A stretch of 64,000 bases of DNA from Clavelina lepadiformis (lineage: Eukaryota > Chordata > Ascidiacea > Aplousobranchia > Clavelinidae), in the NCBI RefSeq assembly GCF_947623445.1, contig NC_135248.1, positions 4,588,977-4,652,976 on the forward strand. The letters are read 5' to 3'. Below the pieces are notes generated by a model that was given only the letters and a program-made list of their open reading frames with translations, was not told the DNA's origin and ran no database searches. Shown here one piece after another: positions 18,601 through 33,757 of this stretch. The position numbers and the translations under genes are program-made. How positions within the stretch are numbered: position 1 is the first letter of the stretch; each line of letters begins with the position of its first letter.

Positions 18601-19933
18601 ATAAGTTCCGAAACTGTGTGAACTTAAAAATACCAATGCTCGTGAACAAATTATTCATTGATAAGTTCCGTACAAAATAACTCGTTGCTATATGATGCTG
18701 TTTTGACGTTGGCTTCAAGTCAACTTTTGCATGTTATTAATTCTGGTCAATCGAATAATTTTCAACAATGATATACTTTGGTTGTTAATTGTCTGGACTC
18801 TAAACTAGTGGTATGTTAGACAGGGTAGCAGGTATAATAAACCTAGGTAACCACAAGTACATGTCAGAAACATGCGGCACAATAATTAATTAATAACTAA
18901 ATTACTCCTTTGAAGTCTTTTGTAACTTCGAAAGTAAATTTACTTTTTTTAATTTACTCAAAAATTAACAAATTTTAATACGTGTTTCGTAAGGCTTCAA
19001 TAAAAGCCACTGCTTTTCGACCATAAAGGTTTGTTTCAAATTTGTTTGATTTTACATCTTTCGTTTTCTAAAAAGATATGGAAGAGTGTACATCTCTAAA
19101 ATTGTGCTTCTGAGATCAACAGAATAACTACAGAAATTGTGAAAGTTGTTAACCTACAAACAATTTCCTGACGGGCAATTTCTGATTTTTTCGCATGACA
19201 AATATTACTATATTAACGATTTTTAAATGTTTTTCAAGTTTTTCATGAACTTTATTTGGCTTCAAACAAATTAATTCAAATGTTATTGGAACTTCTTTCA
19301 ATTTTTAAAAATTTATTTTAGGCATGTTAAATTTGTTCCAACTTTTGTAAATTGTTTCTCCCAATTAACGCAATCCTTCAAACACTACTGCTAAAATGTT
19401 GCTAAAAATCTATTACATACGTAATGTAATACAATTGCATGTACATATGGAATAATGAGCCATCTAAAAAGTATTGCATTTCTGAAAAACAGCGGCAAGA
19501 GATTGTTCTAAAACCAATGAGTAGTTTTAGAACACATGCTTTTGTTTTTACTTTAACTTAAATAGGTCATAAAAACTTTCATCCATTTAATTCATATAAT
19601 CTATAATTATAATTACAAAAAACAGATGTTCGAACATTCAGTATATATAAAATTATCAAATTTTCACACGGAATTAAATCGTATCTAATATGGACAAAAA
19701 TTTCTGTATAATTGCTGCGTATCAATTGAATGACTTAAATACATTAGCAAAGGTTTCAGCAGAATGGTATAAGCAACCGCAACGAAATGAGTAATTATTT
19801 TGTACACGACGCAGATTTTCGACGGGTGAAAAAGCATTTTGCTTACTTTTTGTCAATCAACTCAGGGTATAAATTGAAATGTCACAAAGTTTCGTCAGTG
19901 CAAGGATCTGCTGGAGAAATATTCGTGAAAGTC
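15656..19933. other. No supported gene
   Basis: AT-rich intergenic DNA. The last few hundred bases before 19934 align loosely with the 5' flank of the sister protease gene, for example GAGTAATTATTT followed by CAGATTTTC, so they are probably its promoter and leader. A 64-codon ATG frame at 17091-17285 starts with a hydrophobic run but has no other support. Confidence 0.5.
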
Positions 19934-22900
19934 ATGGCAAAGGTAGTGTGTAATGCACGACGGTTTATGGTGACAATTTTCATCGTCATCGTGATAAGTA
20001 AGTCAAACACTTTAAAAACTTTTATCAATATGAGCATCTTGTTGCGAAAAAATTTGGTAGAATGTTGTCGTAAGTGTATAAGCATACACGTCTTTAGCGT
20101 TTACCGGGAGTTATAATTGTTTTGTAATATACCGATTTTGACGGAAGACTATTATCACAGGCTTAGATACCGTGAAAGCTACTGAGTTGATGATGGCTTT
20201 AAGAAGAGGAGCGTGGTCTAAATGGTCGGAGTGGGGCCCTTGCTCGACATCGTGCGGCGAGGGAGTAGAGTACAAGTAAGTGCAGGCATAAGGCTTAATT
20301 TTTGATATTAATCATTTCGACAAAATTTGTACGTTGTATGCGTGATGGTTTGTACTGAAAATTTCTAGTTACTTCTCTTACTTTGATGAACCTCTAGAAC
20401 AAGAAACTGCACCCAAGGAATGCCTGGGATAGGCAGGTGCAGCGGACTTTCCTGGGAAGTGCGTAGTTGTGACTTTGGAAGCTGTGGTAAGTCTGCAAAA
20501 TCATGAGCATGGATTCAAGTACCAATGAAGACTTTAAAGATGTAACGCATTATGTTTATAGAATATCTCATTCTTAAAAGTTTATTACTCTTAAAGCCTA
20601 GACAGAGGGTGGTTATTATTTGCAGGTACCACGAAAATATCATCAGCTATTGTTAATGCGAAAATGGTGAACATCTTGCTCGAAGGTAGTGGTACTGCAA
20701 ACACTACGGATTTCGATTTTCTTACAAATACCACAAACTCGATTTCTAGCCAATATGTTGACTGTTACAAAAAGAACAACGCCTTTGCTTACCGAGGGAT
20801 GGCTTCTTATACGCAGTCGGGATATTCCTGTCAAAACTGGCTATCACAGACTCCTCATAGTCATACTTTGTGAGCTATACTTTATGTTCTTTGATTTCTT
20901 TTGCATTTTCAGTCATTAATGGTACTGCCTGTTGCTTGATTATATAGTTAATAGTGTTGCTGAAACATATTGAGCACAGATAGGATGCTCACGATTATAG
21001 TCAAAGTTTTAGATTCGCAGATAACTTTGTAATCACTCAAAGCCTTAAAGTTAAGCTCTTTGTTTAACCTCGATATCGTTGTATTTGTAGCAATCCAACG
21101 TATTATCCGTATGGAGGCCTCGGTGACCACAGTTTCTGTAGAAGTCCAGATAATGACACTCGTCCCTGGTGCTTTGTACAATCTCAATTTGTAGTGTGGG
21201 AGTTTTGTGAAGTTCCAGTTTGTCACGGTAGGTGCTTGTGACTTGCAACAAGCTTGTTTAAATTTTCTTTGAAAAGTTTTTGTAAAGAATGAACACCAGA
21301 ACCAAAACAATATACACTGTTCAAGGAGTTCTGTACTCCAACAGGTTTGCGTATTTGCATTATGTTAAAATACTTAACTGCAAACACACAACACACAACA
21401 AACCCCTTAATTTGATTTTGATAAATAAATGAATGATTACAGAGCATATAAACAAAATACGAAACCAAAATTATAAAGTTATGTATTGGACACCTTGTAT
21501 TATAATTTTATATTCGAAGTAAAAACTATTTAACAAAAATCGTTTTTGTGTTAAACCAACTGGACGATTAAAATCGTTCCAGAAACAACGCGTCCCACCG
21601 ATTGCTTTGATGAACGAGATCCATCGAGTTATCGTGGGTTTGTGGACAAAACCGAAGATGGAACACCGTGCCTAATATGGGATTTATACAACACTTATTC
21701 TCATATATAGTAAGCACTTTCAGGTTTTAAAGAGCACACCATTTGCTGCTTATCAAAACTGTTTTATTCGAGTAAAGTAACTTACTTAAATATTGCTCAA
21801 GTAAAGGGTTTTAGTACTCAGATGGCTTGAGAATCTTTTTAAAAATTCTGTAAACTCACTGAATCAATTTATGTGTTTTTGCTGTAATCTATATAAGCTT
21901 TAAGGGGTCGATACTTGCTAAAGATTGTAATTCAACGGGGTTTTGTTCATTAAATCATCACATGCTCTTCTATGCTGTGATAAACGTAACCGTTTTAATA
22001 CTTGCTGAAGGTTGCAAGCAGCAAAACTTATTAAACCATTTTCTGCCAATACGTTATACAACAGCTCTTCGTCAAGATTCCCTGGCAAGGGACTGGGAAA
22101 TCACAATTATTGCAGGAACCCTGATGGTGACGTCAGACCTTGGTGCTTTACCACTAACCCGGACTTTGACTGGGCTTACTGTGACGTGGATAAATGTTCA
22201 GGTAAATCGCGTAGATGCGATAAATCGCCATCAAGACGAGGTTGAATATTTATCAAATTCATTTTGAAACAATTATTGGTTAAAAGTTTATTAATAGATA
22301 TCAAAGCAAAATTAAAATGTTATTGACAATACTTTTTTAAAATCGAAAGATATCACTCCTCAACCATCAACGCTTGATTGTGGAAAAGCAAAATCACCCA
22401 TTGCGCTTGATGAAACTTATCGAATTCTCGGAAGTAAGTTGATTGATGTGCAAAAAGCTTGTTACTTAAAGCTTTTATGAATGTAGTCATTTATAAGAAC
22501 GATTATAATAAAGCACTTGTTTGAAGTAAATCTGCTGTTTCTCTGCAGGTATCGAGAGCTATCCGGGAAGCCTTCCGTGGCAAGTCGCACTTTATTACTC
22601 TGGCAACCACGTTCTATTTTGTGGCGCTTCGATTATCAGCAACCGGTGGATTATTACCGCTGCCCATTGCATTTCAAAGTGAGTAAAATGTACGTGAGTG
22701 TATACAAGCACAAGCACACTCTTCGTTTGCAAAATCAACGTTGCTCTCGTTTAAGCTATTGTTGATAGCTTTTAAAGTGTTTCGCGAGGCTTTTTTCATA
22801 CTTCACTGGGTACTTTTTATAGTCCTGGTAATCCATCGTCTTACTACGGTTACGTTGGAAAGCATCAAAAATACCAGAGAGAAGACACAGAAAAACGACT

Positions 22901-23974
22901 GGATTTTTCCTACATTATTCAGCACCTAGATTATAATGAAGACAGTACACAGAATGATATCACTTTAATAATGGTAATTGTCATTCCTTTGCTATATTTA
23001 AAATACATTTGAGCTGAGAGGTATGTATAATCATCTACGCAGATGATGTTTCACGTTTTTTTGAGTAAGCTCTTTGATAAAAAATTTTCTTCTCAGTTAA
23101 TTTTCGTTAAACATAATTTTATTAATATACTGATAATGTTATGATTTGCTTTATATATTTTATTTGTTTTTACCCTTTTTTGTATTTAAGTTTACTGAAC
23201 TACTGGAATTTACTGACCACATACAACCTGTGTGTATTCCCAACAAACCGTCTCCTAACAACAGAATGACGATTATTTCCGGTTGGGGAACTTCCCAAGG
23301 TGAGGAAAATATCCTGACCTGAAGTTAATGTAAATTTAGTCAAACACGTGAGACCAGTTTCTTGAAAAAAGATTCTTGATAAATTTGATCAGGAACCGGT
23401 TCAACCAATGTGCTTCGTCAAGCGTCTGTACCAATCATAACACGACTGAGCTGCTCTTCCAAGCTCTCCGGTATCCTGGCTGGCATGATATGCGCTGGTT
23501 TTGAAGACGGTGGAAAGGACGCTTGTCAGGTAAAAAGTAATTTGAAAAATCAAATCATAATGATTTTGTTAATTTTTACAACTTTTTTACATTTTTCAGC
23601 TTACTGATTTTTCAAATTTAATTTATTAAACAGGGCGACGGCGGAGGGCCGCTAGTGGGCGTAATCGACGAAGGACGATACGAATTGGTTGGAATAGTTT
23701 CCTGGGGAATTGGATGCGCACGACCTATGCTACCTGGCGTATACACAGATGTAAATAATTCTTCATAAAATAAATGTTTGAACATAAGCAATAAACGTTT
23801 ATATTTGGCAGCATATACTTATATCAGAATAGGTAATCCTTCCAAATGTAACACTCTTTAAATCATTTTGTGAACACGTAATTTAAGCAATTGAGTATTT
23901 TGTTTTTCTAGGTGTACTATTACAAAAATTGGATTAAAGACATAATCAGCGTTTTTAGTTCTATTTCTAACTGA
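19934..23974 (+). CDS. Secreted TSP1-kringle-kringle-trypsin-like protein A, predicted inactive protease
   Basis: Fourteen phase-consistent exons give 567 residues: 19934-19997, 20161-20275, 20398-20486, 20626-20869, 21091-21227, 21583-21709, 22065-22201, 22350-22433, 22549-22678, 22823-22973, 23191-23299, 23393-23529, 23634-23750, 23912-23974. The order is a hydrophobic signal segment, TSP1 ([17 protein letters not shown], six Cys), a Ser/Thr/Asn-rich linker, kringle 1 and kringle 2 (six Cys each; both with RPWCF), then a chymotrypsin-fold domain. The activation-type site is R-ILGS. His (TAAHC) and Asp (NDITL) of the triad are present. The Ser motif reads GDGGGP instead of GDSGGP, so peptide hydrolysis should be lost. 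The Asp that selects Arg/Lys in trypsin is kept (KDACQ). The likely role is extracellular binding, decoy or cofactor (inferred). It is the tandem paralogue of the gene at 29354. Confidence 0.92.
20161..20486 (+). other. Thrombospondin type-1 repeat of protein A (two exons)
   Basis: The domain is split by an intron after GVEYK. Exon 2 carries the layered tryptophans and the CSTSC pair. Exon 3 carries RNC, GRC, RSC and GSC. This gives six cysteines, as expected for one TSP1 repeat. Such repeats bind glycosaminoglycans and are often C-mannosylated on the WxxW motif. Confidence 0.9.
23634..23750 (+). other. Exon 13 of protein A with catalytic Ser replaced by Gly
   Basis: The exon begins Gly-Asp-Gly-Gly-Gly-Pro. 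The codon for the nucleophile is GGC, where the sister gene has AGT (exon starting 33429). Both the first and third codon positions differ. The rest of the exon is nearly identical and in frame, with no stop and intact splice sites. Confidence 0.93.
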
Positions 23975-25090: not shown

Positions 25091-25194
25091 AACTCACCAA
25101 CTCACCAACTCACCAACTCACCAACTCACCAACTCACCAACTCACCAACTCACCAACTCACCAACTCACCAACTCACCAACTCACCAACTCACC
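25091..25194. repeat. Minisatellite, 13 copies of AACTCACC
   Basis: There are thirteen head-to-tail 8-bp units with no visible variants, a sign of recent expansion. The homologous point downstream of gene B (about 34937-34950) has only one unit-like sequence, AATCACCTCAC. Flanking sequence on both sides aligns between the two places. Confidence 0.95.
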
Positions 25195-25239
25195 ACCATG
25201 TTTAACGATAAATTACGCAACTCGACATGCAGTATAAAA

Positions 25240-27640
25240 GTTATCAAACTTAGTCGTCCCTGGTCAAGAGCTCGCTGTTTCCACCAATCAAAAATAAAGC
25301 TCTCGATCGGCTTTGAGCGCTTAGGGTAAAAAAAGTTTAAAACTGACACATCTCGTAATGTGTACAAAGTCCATGCAAAACTGGGTGAGATCGTTGTCGT
25401 CGTGTGAGCCAGATTTATTCAGCTACCCAGACTACATTTTCAGGCACGTGTTGAGCAGTAACTGCATCGTGCTGTCGTCATCCAAAACACGCAGGCCATG
25501 CATTCTGCTTTGAATGTGTGTAATAGAATAAAATGGTCTCTGCAGTTTGCTTCCCCGCGCAACACTCACGTTGGCCGAAGTTTGCCGCTCCTCAATTGTA
25601 CAGAGTTGATCACAGGCGCCCTAACCCGGTTCACAAGCGAATAAGCCGTAACCAAGCTAGCCTGGGCAGCAAAGCTCTATGAGGGTGTACTGGGAGATGT
25701 CGTCGATGATGAATTTGCGACGTCTGGCGTGGCTTTCCTGCCAGTGCGCGTTCCATACGTGGTCCGCCAAAACAAATCGCACTGAAGCCTGAGTTCTCGG
25801 CAGGTTCTAGCAACTGCAGTACCGTAAGTACCTGAGAATGTCTAAATTTTAGTCGTCGGCTTTGTTCATTTGCAAAGACACAAAGATTTGAGTGGAGAAG
25901 AGAGAATGGCTCTGTCTGTGTGTACTACGACATATGACAGGTGCGTAATGGTGTAAACTTGAGCAAAAGCTTCTGTACGAAAACTAGCAGCCCCAGTACA
26001 CCAGCCTGAGCCAATCAGTCTTCTTATCAAGGCTGCCCGGGACGTAAGTTTCTTGAGTAGTAACTCGAGGTGTCGAAAAGCCTGACCAATCTGTCCAAGG
26101 CTACTCCAAGGTATTTCGGATCTTGAAAGAAAGGCACAGGCTCATGTTGACTTTAAGCTCACGTTATCTTGCTTACTTGCTGTTTAGGTGGAAGCTGGTA
26201 GGCTGCCGAGTTCGATTTGGCTTTGCAGCTATAACTCCATTTCTGTAAGTAAGCCGATAAGTCATGTACTGGCAAAGGGTGTTTTCCACTGTTCTCTGAT
26301 TCCTTGCCGAGAACACGATCGTTAAGTCGTTCGCGTATATATAAATATTAAGACGATATCGTGTCTGTTAGGTCATGGGCATAGATGTTAAAATAGAGGA
26401 ATGCCAAAACCAATCCTTGTGCCTAATCGAACGCCATTCTTGAATCATCGTTGCCTGCATCGCTGGCTGTGGCCGGTGGTGATGGTAAAGCTCCGTTTAT
26501 AGACAAGCTACATAACCTGTGGTAATCTATGGGAGAAGACCGAAGACCGAAGACCTTGCAGATAAAGCCGGAGTTACATGCTGCTAAGTCTGTCAGTACA
26601 GCGCCGTCCTTTTCCTTAACCTCTAAGCTGTTCGTGATGTCATAGGTCATATGAGTGACCTACGACCTGCTGTACGGTTGACTTTTACTTCGGAACCCCG
26701 CCTGTTCCCGGGAGAAGAGGGTCTTAATTGTGGGTGCTATGGAGCGTAAAATCGAGCGTTTGAAAATTTTAAAGGAGACACACAAGTAGATATAAAACCA
26801 TAAATGTTTTGGTTTTCTTGTGACTTTTGAAGCTTTGGGCCTTCTGCAAATTCTGAAAATTTGTGATAGCGCAAGCAATAAAAAAAAGACTATGCAGCCA
26901 GCCAATGGCCGGACCAGCATTGAGTATAGGTTTCGAGAAGATGCTCTCTGGGCATAGAGCCTCATCTGGATTTGTTTGATGGAAGACAGCGCGAACTCAT
27001 CTGGGGAAAATCGCCTGAGATGTTTTCACCGTCGAGTGTTTTTACCCTTGACAGGTCAGACACATGTCAGAGAAGAAGCACAGATGAATCGAGTGAGCTG
27101 ATGACCCAAATCTCATACTCGGAAATCCAACACGGCGAGTAAATAGAGCGGTAGCCGCGTGGGATACCATTTCTTGGCGCAAGTAGTAAGACGTTTAAAA
27201 AATATTGGTAAGCTTTATCCGAGTTTGTAGAAATACGTGATAAAAGACCTGATGCGGACCCGTTGGAAATAAAGCTAAAGCATTTTCAGTCGACCTTTCT
27301 GAAGTTCCTTCGCTGGGGTGCTTGAAACCGATGCCGTGAGTTCGCAAGCAGTGGTTCAGCAAGGGTCGATGTTAGAACCGGTTAAACTTCTCAAGCACAT
27401 ATCAATCTTGTAGTTAGTTGTCAGCATCATTTTCCTTCTTAATGCCAAACCAGGGTTTATTGCTGTTCTCGAGCGTCCAGAGAAAAATGTTACTTTATCC
27501 TTTGGGTTGAAGAGAAAGTTCAGGTTGTTGTTGGTTGCCCTGGAAGCCAGGCAGTCTCCGTCGCTTTTAGCGTTGTTATATCCCCAGTCAGCGTGGTGGC
27601 AGTAGAAAAAGAGCGGCGAGAAAGGTGACATTCGGAAAAG
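25240..27640 (-). mobile_element. Degenerate, 5'-truncated non-LTR retrotransposon (LINE)
   Basis: On the minus strand, pieces of one APE-endonuclease/reverse-transcriptase ORF follow in the right order but in shifting frames with stops. First is endonuclease sequence (HHADWGY, then NPKD..TFFSGR..NPGLAL; about 27631-27400). Next is the start of the RT domain (IAPTIKTLFSREQAGFR; about 26740-26690) and EKDGAVLTDLAA (about 26615-26580). Then come QGLVLAFLYFNIYAHDLTD (about 26425-26370) and the catalytic box decayed from YADD to YANDL (about 26330). The C-terminal end is HGLRVLDDDSTMQLLLNTC with a stop at 25432-25434. It starts inside the endonuclease, so it is 5' truncated. GC is higher than in its surroundings. 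It cannot encode an active enzyme. Confidence 0.88.
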
Positions 27641-28132
27641 TAGAGCTTGTACGTTAATGATGTCATAATCGTTTACACTTATCTACACCTATACAATGAG
27701 CGAACCATTTTAAATTTTCATGAACAAATGGAGAAATTCAACGACAACGGCAACTTCTCTTTTTTATATTGTAGTAGACCTATGCTGGACCCAGCTAGCG
27801 AGAATTTGGAAATAGCTAGCCTGTCTCAAAAAGTTCATTTGAAATTTAGGACCAGGATGGCAAGGGCCCAATGTATTTGGGTAAAACGTTAAATGACGGT
27901 GAACTTGCTCTAAGTCATGCCTTTAACGTTCAGGTGGTGTGTTGTGGACCTTAGGTATATTTTGTTGTTGGTCTTGTTTTGCTAAAACAACTGTTTCCGT
28001 GCCGTTTATGCTGAATGTTTTGGGAGGGGGGTCTTGAGATAAGCGCCAAGTGATTTACGGTAAGAGATAAAAATCAACCACTCACATGATTAGAAAACAA
28101 CTTCGATGATAAATAATTCACAAACCTATACC

Positions 28133-29353: not shown

Positions 29354-33757
<4,404 letters not shown>

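What the first reader, a model, noticed from the sequence alone, without database searches (positions are those of the whole stretch)
23634..23750. Upstream protease paralogue has lost its catalytic serine
Gene A encodes GDGGGP where gene B encodes GDSGGP. The codon is GGC versus AGT, two differences in a codon set in nearly identical sequence. His and Asp of the triad, all domain cysteines, every splice site and the full frame are intact. That fits a maintained pseudoprotease rather than a decaying gene. An active and an inactive secreted protease side by side suggest a regulator/enzyme or decoy pair.
Basis: partly seen in the sequence, partly recalled or inferred. Interest (0 to 1): 0.75.

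Follow-up and report, generated by a model that had tools for sequence, protein, structure and literature searches.

The report
Sea-squirt plasminogen duplicate without catalytic serine
In the light-bulb sea squirt, one of two neighbouring plasminogen-like genes has recently lost the amino acid that makes the enzyme cut, which looks like a fresh parallel to known inactive plasminogen relatives, but whether the dead copy has a job or is simply drifting is not yet shown.

Summary
The window is from Clavelina lepadiformis. Genes A (19934-23974) and B (29354-33757) are tandem 14-exon genes for TSP1-kringle-kringle-trypsin proteins, named plasminogen-like in public records. A encodes GDGGGP (GGC, 23640-23642), B GDSGGP (AGT). 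His57, Asp102, Asp189, 26 shared cysteines and all GT-AG introns stand. B and six of six other tunicate proteins compared have Ser. Genome-wide, the exact motif carries Gly at 2 of 94 sites. Artefact is unlikely: assembly QV 67.4.

New: codon 195 lies inside a gene-conversion tract (23385-23771, 14 mismatches in 387 columns; 0 of 2000 permutations). The loss most simply post-dates conversion, so an intact frame is weak evidence of maintenance. A's protease domain, outside the tract, evolves faster than B's (99 of 100 bootstraps); its TSP1/kringles do not (59 of 100). That fits selection kept on the binding domains.

Best reading: a young plasminogen-family pseudoprotease working as a non-catalytic binding competitor, like apo(a). 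Recurrent loss in this family is known (HGF, MST1, LPA, PLG-2). New member of a known kind; polymorphism or drift not excluded.

The parts
19934..23974 (+). Gene A, 14 exons, 567 aa: hydrophobic signal-like start (by eye), TSP1, kringle 1, kringle 2, trypsin domain; catalytic Ser replaced by Gly
   Evidence: Splice model; Pfam Trypsin, Kringle (2 stretches), TSP_1 above cut-off; contained letter for letter in public protein P0002
23634..23750 (+). Exon 13 of gene A, the stretch named in the finding
23640..23642 (+). Codon 195 (chymotrypsin numbering, recalled) of A: GGC, Gly
22421..22433 (+). Activation site of A, R|ILGS; the Ser19 codon is 22433 plus 22549-22550 of exon 9; B has R|IVGG
22665..22667 (+). 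His57 codon of A (CAT), intact
22956..22958 (+). Asp102 codon of A (GAT), intact
23518..23520 (+). Asp189 codon of A (GAC), trypsin-type specificity residue, intact
23385..23771 (+). Gene-conversion tract shared with B (33180-33566): exon 12, intron 12, exon 13, start of intron 13; contains codon 195
   Evidence: 14 mismatches in 387 columns against 27% mismatch over the whole gene; 0 of 2000 permutations; intron 12 93.3% identical, neighbouring intron 11 65.9%
20161..20486 (+). Exons 2-3 of A, TSP1 domain
20626..22201 (+). Exons 4-7 of A, kringles 1 and 2; the Thr-rich linker between the kringles of B is missing in A
29354..33757 (+). Gene B, 14 exons, 582 aa, same architecture, triad H-D-S intact, R|IVGG
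   Evidence: identical to public protein P0001
33435..33437 (+). Codon 195 of B: AGT, Ser
19868..19874 (+). TATA-like sequence TATAAAT upstream of A; a TATATAAA lies in the aligned place upstream of B (from 29272)
   Evidence: function inferred only

Best explanation
Gene A is a young, catalytically dead plasminogen-family paralogue (S195G) lying head-to-tail beside its active-looking sister B. Supported by the sequence: tandem duplication of a TSP1-kringle-kringle-trypsin gene; divergence; later gene conversion that made exons 12-13 (and, judging by few silent differences, exons 8 and 9) nearly identical again; then Ser195 to Gly, and probably Gly19 to Ser, in A only; faster protein evolution of A than B in the protease domain but not in TSP1 and kringles. 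Inferred: the protein is secreted and folded, can still be clipped at Arg15-Ile16 and still has the S1 pocket (Asp189), but cannot form an acyl-enzyme; it works as a non-catalytic competitor, using kringles and TSP1 to occupy the same matrix or cell-surface sites as B, and possibly its substrate-like pocket to hold B's canonical inhibitors or substrates. Probabilities (judgement): truly Ser-less in this genome 0.97; no useful protease activity 0.93; loss after the conversion 0.85; kept for a non-catalytic role 0.5; decoy/competitor specifically 0.35-0.4.
For: Intact 14-exon frame and triad otherwise; domains above Pfam cut-offs; B and six of six other tunicate proteins have Ser; tract and permutations, sliding identity with a sharp left edge at 23385; A branch longer than B branch in the protease domain outside the tract in 99 of 100 bootstraps (0.179 against 0.028 substitutions/site), against 59 of 100 in TSP1+kringles (0.213 against 0.188), and a larger A share in protease than in the N-terminal part in 98 of 100 pairs; in both kringles of A the acidic pair D-x-D and the W, F, W positions of the plasminogen lysine-binding groove are present (alignments; roles recalled); same outcome repeatedly in this family: HGF/MST1 and PLG-2 of birds and coelacanths (PMC6337849, passages and section 11), apo(a) (PMC11555715, passages), three shark and one bullfrog plasminogen-like proteins; Gly is the commonest replacement of Ser195 among serine peptidase homologues of the beetle Tenebrio, 26 of 101 replaced (125 homologues, 24 with Ser; PMC11172050, passages).
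Against: No expression, protein or population data. The loss is young, so intact exons prove little. Pairwise dN/dS is fairly high, 0.45-0.58 over the gene by three methods. The site-count version of the rate test is weak: A-derived 29, B-derived 17, unresolved 26 over six stretches, p = 0.10; protease 13 to 4 (10 unresolved), p = 0.049; TSP1+kringles 16 to 13 (16 unresolved), p = 0.71; difference between the two parts p = 0.21. The cationic position of the lysine-binding groove (Arg before the second Trp in plasminogen K4) is Val in K1 and Asp in K2 of A, so lysine binding is uncertain; B lacks it too. The stretches upstream of A and B are only 62% identical (143 of 231 aligned), no more than several of their introns, so a conserved promoter is not shown. 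Fast protease-domain evolution also fits simple relaxation with no function.
Confidence: 0.42

Rival explanations
1. A is simply a recently inactivated duplicate that is drifting; it has no job and will decay or be overwritten by the next conversion from B.
For: Loss is young. In a simulation, a neutrally drifting A stays free of stops, frameshifts and splice hits with probability 0.087-0.386 over nine settings if the loss fell at a uniform time since conversion. Among columns where A and B differ and the tunicate outgroups are invariant, three in the protease domain are departures of A alone (positions 19, 195 and B residue 446) and none of B alone.
Against: TSP1 and kringles of A evolve no faster than those of B; if the loss fell right at the conversion, full intactness has probability 0-0.11 in the same simulation.
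Confidence: 0.28
2. Gly195 is one allele; other haplotypes of A still carry Ser, so this is a null polymorphism rather than a fixed pseudoprotease.
For: The assembly is one haplotype of one individual, not fully phased, and the same paper cites two mitochondrial clades in the western Mediterranean (PMC10884593, part 1 of 3 read); nothing here samples a second allele.
Against: A second deviation (ILGS) and protease-domain acceleration outside the tract suggest a longer history of relaxed constraint in A.
Confidence: 0.17
3. A is a ligand in the manner of HGF/MST1: the protease fold has become a receptor-binding surface switched on by cleavage at Arg15-Ile16.
For: Arg-Ile cleavage site and cysteines kept; HGF and MST1 are the standing precedent (PMC13194640, passages; PMC6337849); a worm HGF/plasminogen protein, SVH-1, has both roles (PMC11305532, start of abstract in the search listing).
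Against: The loss is recent and the protease domain is still 88% identical to that of B; no receptor is known; G19S could impair the switch (inference).
Confidence: 0.1
4. Assembly or sequencing artefact.
For: Paralogues about 96% identical here could be mis-merged in principle.
Against: 117-fold HiFi, QV 67.4 (PMC10884593); A and B are 5.4 kb apart and differ strongly on both sides of the tract; the DNA search found two copies of the stretch in the genome, A's and B's.
Confidence: 0.03

Closest known systems
Apolipoprotein(a), LPA (primate duplicate of plasminogen)
   Same: Neighbouring duplicate of a plasminogen gene; kringles followed by an inactive protease domain; inactivated in a variety of ways in different primates (PMC11555715, passages)
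   Different: LPA expanded kringle IV and lies head-to-head with PLG; human apo(a) keeps the triad but lost the activation Arg and eight residues; A keeps the Arg and lost Ser195; A has TSP1 and only two kringles, and no lipoprotein partner is implied
HGF and MST1 (plasminogen-related growth factors)
   Same: Plasminogen family, inactive trypsin domain; Tyr at 195 in all 8 HGF-type rows listed
   Different: Old (already inactive in lampreys), more catalytic residues lost, PAN domain and more kringles; A has lost one triad residue, recently
PLG-2 of birds and coelacanths; plasminogen-like proteins of sharks (P0053, P0247, P0057) and bullfrog (P0037)
   Same: Extra plasminogen genes that lost catalytic residues (PLG-2 by PMC6337849); the shark and frog ones lost Ser195 itself (G, G, N, N)
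   Different: Vertebrate; the shark and frog ones have PAN and several kringles and the shark ones also lack the residue at 189; separate events. The two bird rows that I looked at, P0238 and P0259, keep GDSGGP, so I did not see PLG-2 itself
Serine protease homologues of arthropods
   Same: Ser195 to Gly in an S1A domain (26 of 125 in Tenebrio); some act as cofactors or regulators (recalled, and titles/abstracts in the listing)
   Different: Related only through the S1A fold; no kringles (recalled)
Tunicate plasminogen-like proteases (Phallusia P0003, Ciona P0004/P0076/P0028, Styela P0062/P0069)
   Same: Same family; TSP1, kringles and trypsin in most of the longer ones
   Different: All six keep H-D-S

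Membership tests
Plasminogen-like kringle proteases of tunicates | Kringle(s) followed by an S1A trypsin domain, best matches to plasminogen | tested here: met
   Pfam; best named matches are plasminogen-like/plasminogen (queried with B); kringle hits to plasminogen first
S1A serine protease (active) | His57, Asp102, Ser195 | tested here: not met
   H and D present, residue 195 is Gly in A; all three present in B
Serine pseudoprotease | S1A fold with a catalytic residue missing | tested here: met
   Trypsin model match over 2-220 of 220 positions, Gly at 195; fold inferred from sequence, no structure model could be made
Serine pseudoprotease | Protein made, and shown to lack activity and to act otherwise | not testable with these tools
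   No expression or enzyme data
HGF/MST1 | Orthology to vertebrate HGF/MST1 | tested here: not met
   A's nearest relative is B, 77-79% identical, then tunicate plasminogen-like proteins
Apo(a)/LPA | Kringle IV expansion, derived from vertebrate PLG | tested here: not met
   Two kringles and TSP1; duplicate of a tunicate gene
Maintained duplicate | Purifying selection on A after the loss | tested here: inconclusive
   Kringle/TSP1 rates of A and B alike, but no closely related species and loss too recent

The most novel reading that the evidence does not exclude
Gene A is a fixed, expressed, non-catalytic plasminogen relative that regulates its active neighbour B, so that tunicates have independently re-invented the enzyme/pseudo-enzyme split that vertebrates have as plasminogen/HGF-MST1-apo(a), and here it is caught within a fraction of the pair's silent divergence after the loss, in an active-site exon that gene conversion has homogenised and could homogenise again.
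Probability: 0.35. Interest if true: 0.62.

Novelty: new member of a known kind. Interest (0 to 1): 0.45.

Why it matters
If A is fixed and expressed, it is a natural, very young example of how a pseudoenzyme is born: one triad residue gone, active-looking sister next door, gene conversion able to undo or spread the loss. It would add a tunicate to a family in which a 2019 survey identified no plasminogen-related growth factor orthologues in lower chordates (PMC6337849, section 11), and it would make testable why plasminogen genes lose their catalytic centre so often. If A is polymorphic or unexpressed, it is an ordinary dying duplicate.

Tried and rejected
Considered and rejected: a decayed pseudogene (no internal stop, frameshift or broken splice dinucleotide); a reading error (two differences, QV 67.4). 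The double difference in the codon is not in itself evidence of selection (probability 0.165 in exon 13). A conserved promoter as evidence for maintenance was dropped: upstream identity 62%, within the range of the introns. The A-to-B rate test by site counts was only suggestive; the tree-based bootstrap was stronger but rests on distant outgroups (six for the protease, three for the N-terminal part), on unfixed random seeds, and on public models of which P0003 looks wrong at its C-terminus. YN00 failed on the tract (division by zero); the tract's dN/dS is from the other two methods. A search with A's trypsin domain scored 7919 candidates and listed 120, mostly transmembrane serine protease 9 and ovochymase; apart from A, B and Phallusia P0003 it listed no tunicate protein by name. 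A profile search with the shark and frog pseudoproteases (120 of 1859 listed) added one further Ser-less plasminogen-like protein (P0247) and a baboon apo(a) with Arg at 57 (P0255). No codon-level outgroup was at hand, so no branch dN/dS for A. The triad tally gives 194 of the 204 proteins chosen (10 gave no alignment); 5 of the 194 had position 195 unaligned. Direction of the conversion (A to B or B to A) could not be decided. The 8 ORFs of the spacer and flanks given to Pfam had no match above cut-off. PMC12373286 and PMC2527998, passages only, said nothing about these two genes.

Full report
What is there. The window is G000:C9:4588977-4652976 of a genome held as 209,060,895 bases in 95 contigs. 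Gene B's protein is identical to a public protein named plasminogen-like of Clavelina lepadiformis (P0001), and gene A's 567 residues are contained letter for letter in a second one (P0002); the genome paper gives 210.1 Mb and nine chromosomes (PMC10884593, part 1 of 3 read). A (19934-23974) and B (29354-33757) lie head-to-tail, 5.4 kb apart. Each has 14 exons, all introns GT-AG, and encodes a signal-like start (by eye), TSP1, two kringles and a trypsin domain. The public model of A starts at 19787, upstream of a TATA-like sequence at 19868, so the start at 19934 is more likely (inference).

The observation. Codon 23640-23642 of A is GGC, Gly; B has AGT, Ser, at 33435-33437. His57, Asp102 and Asp189 stand in both. 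B and six of six other tunicate proteins compared have Ser. Over the genome, the exact motif behind AR is found with Gly at 2 places, with Ser at 56 (AGY) and 36 (TCN); the reversed control pattern gives 1 in each search. A DNA search found the exon 12-13 stretch twice, in A and in B. With 117-fold HiFi and QV 67.4, an error is unlikely.

A second deviation. The activation site of A reads R|ILGS, that of B R|IVGG. Ser at position 19 was seen in A alone among 186 proteins (plasminogens, HGF, factor XII and others) where the position aligned. Of the columns where A and B differ and the tunicate outgroups present (at least four) are invariant, A alone departs at six, B alone at one, both at two.

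Gene conversion. Over the gene the pair is 72.8% identical in 3751 aligned columns; from 23385 to 23771 it has 14 mismatches in 387, and 0 of 2000 permutations reach this score (261; best permuted 51). The tract takes in intron 12 (93.3% identical), while introns 1 to 11 lie between 46% and 72% and intron 13 at 79%. Exons 8 and 9 also have few silent differences (1 in 21 and 1 in 30 sites) against 0.17 to 0.42 per site in exons 2-7, 10 and 11, so conversion was probably patchy. Since codon 195 differs inside the tract, the simplest order is: conversion while both had Ser, then loss in A. A small unconverted island (at most 58 bp, 23607-23664, by the differences) around the codon cannot be excluded.

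What an intact frame is worth. Taking a divergence of 0.035, 0.067 or 0.08 for the tract as the clock, with three indel settings each, a neutrally drifting A would be free of stops, frameshifts and splice hits with probability 0-0.11 if the loss came right at the conversion, but 0.087-0.386 if it came at a random time since. So intactness leans against decay without excluding it.

Rates. In a protein tree with six tunicate outgroup proteins, the branch to A is 0.179 and to B 0.028 in the protease domain outside the tract; in TSP1 plus kringles, with three outgroups, 0.213 and 0.188. A is longer in 99 of 100 bootstraps for the protease and 59 of 100 for the N-terminal part; A's share is larger in the protease in 98 of 100 pairs. 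Simple site counts point the same way but weakly (29 A-derived, 17 B-derived, 26 unresolved, p = 0.10; protease 13 to 4, p = 0.049; TSP1+kringles 16 to 13, p = 0.71; difference between parts p = 0.21). Pairwise dN/dS is 0.45-0.58 over the gene and 0.14-0.19 in the tract.

How it most likely works (inferred). A should be secreted, disulphide-bonded like B and cleavable at Arg15, with an S1 pocket but no nucleophile. The kringles of both genes keep the D-x-D and W-F-W positions of the lysine-binding groove but not the Arg before the second Trp (A against plasminogen; B by the alignment; roles recalled). I therefore favour competition with B for matrix or cell-surface sites or for inhibitors, in the way speculated for apo(a) and plasmin (PMC11555715), at about 0.35-0.4. 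Drift, a segregating allele, and an HGF-like ligand are the rivals. The upstream stretches of A and B are 62% identical, which shows no more than common descent.

Against what is known. Loss of catalysis recurs in the plasminogen family: HGF and MST1, PLG-2 in birds and coelacanths (PMC6337849, passages and section 11), apo(a) in primates by different substitutions (PMC11555715, passages). In my own tally, 22 of 194 proteins did not read H-D-S; 5 of the 22 had position 195 unaligned, 4 kept Ser but not His or Asp as aligned, 8 were HGF-type with Tyr, and in 5 Ser195 was Gly or Asn: A, three shark and one bullfrog plasminogen-like protein (names). The 2019 survey identified no plasminogen-related growth factor orthologue in lower chordates but lists two lancelet kringle proteases with trypsin domains predicted non-functional. 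I found no paper on a Ser-less tunicate plasminogen in the listings of searches, some of them cut (20 of 23, 12 of 34, 12 of 133 and 10 of 21 shown in 38, 50, 53 and 65), in an open-licence library that holds only part of what is in print.

Verdict. A real, well-placed and young loss; an instance of a known kind, with a useful evolutionary setting and an undecided function.

Noticed in passing
G000:C1:8547410-8557376 (L055, L056): A second neighbouring pair in the same genome: trypsin-type exons with GDGGGP and AASC in place of AAHC (Ser195 and His57 both gone) about 9 kb from a set with AAHC and DSGGP. That each set is one gene is assumed from spacing.
   Followed up: partly
P0053, P0247 (basking and white shark), P0057 (smooth-hound), P0037 (bullfrog): Plasminogen-like proteins that lost Ser195 (Gly, Gly, Asn, Asn); the three shark ones also lack the residue at 189. 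The basking shark has a Ser-bearing plasminogen as well (P0035).
   Followed up: partly
window 31292-31348 (B); exon 6 of A starts at 21583: The Thr-rich linker between the kringles of B (19 aa; Thr-rich linkers also in Phallusia and Ciona) is missing from A, whose exon 6 is 57 nt shorter.
   Followed up: partly
window 19787-19933: The public model of A (616 aa) adds 49 residues upstream, across a TATA-like sequence at 19868; probably a wrong start.
   Followed up: partly
window 27356-27682 (minus strand): Weak match to Exo_endo_phos_2 (E 0.0065, 16.8 bits, below the cut-off of 27.4) in the spacer between A and B; perhaps a decayed retroelement.
   Followed up: no
window 25091-25195: Perfect tandem array of AACTCACC, 13.1 copies, between A and B.
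   Followed up: no
window 22304-22690: Exons 8 and 9 of A and B have few silent differences although intron 8 is 70% identical; probably further conversion tracts in the protease half.
   Followed up: partly
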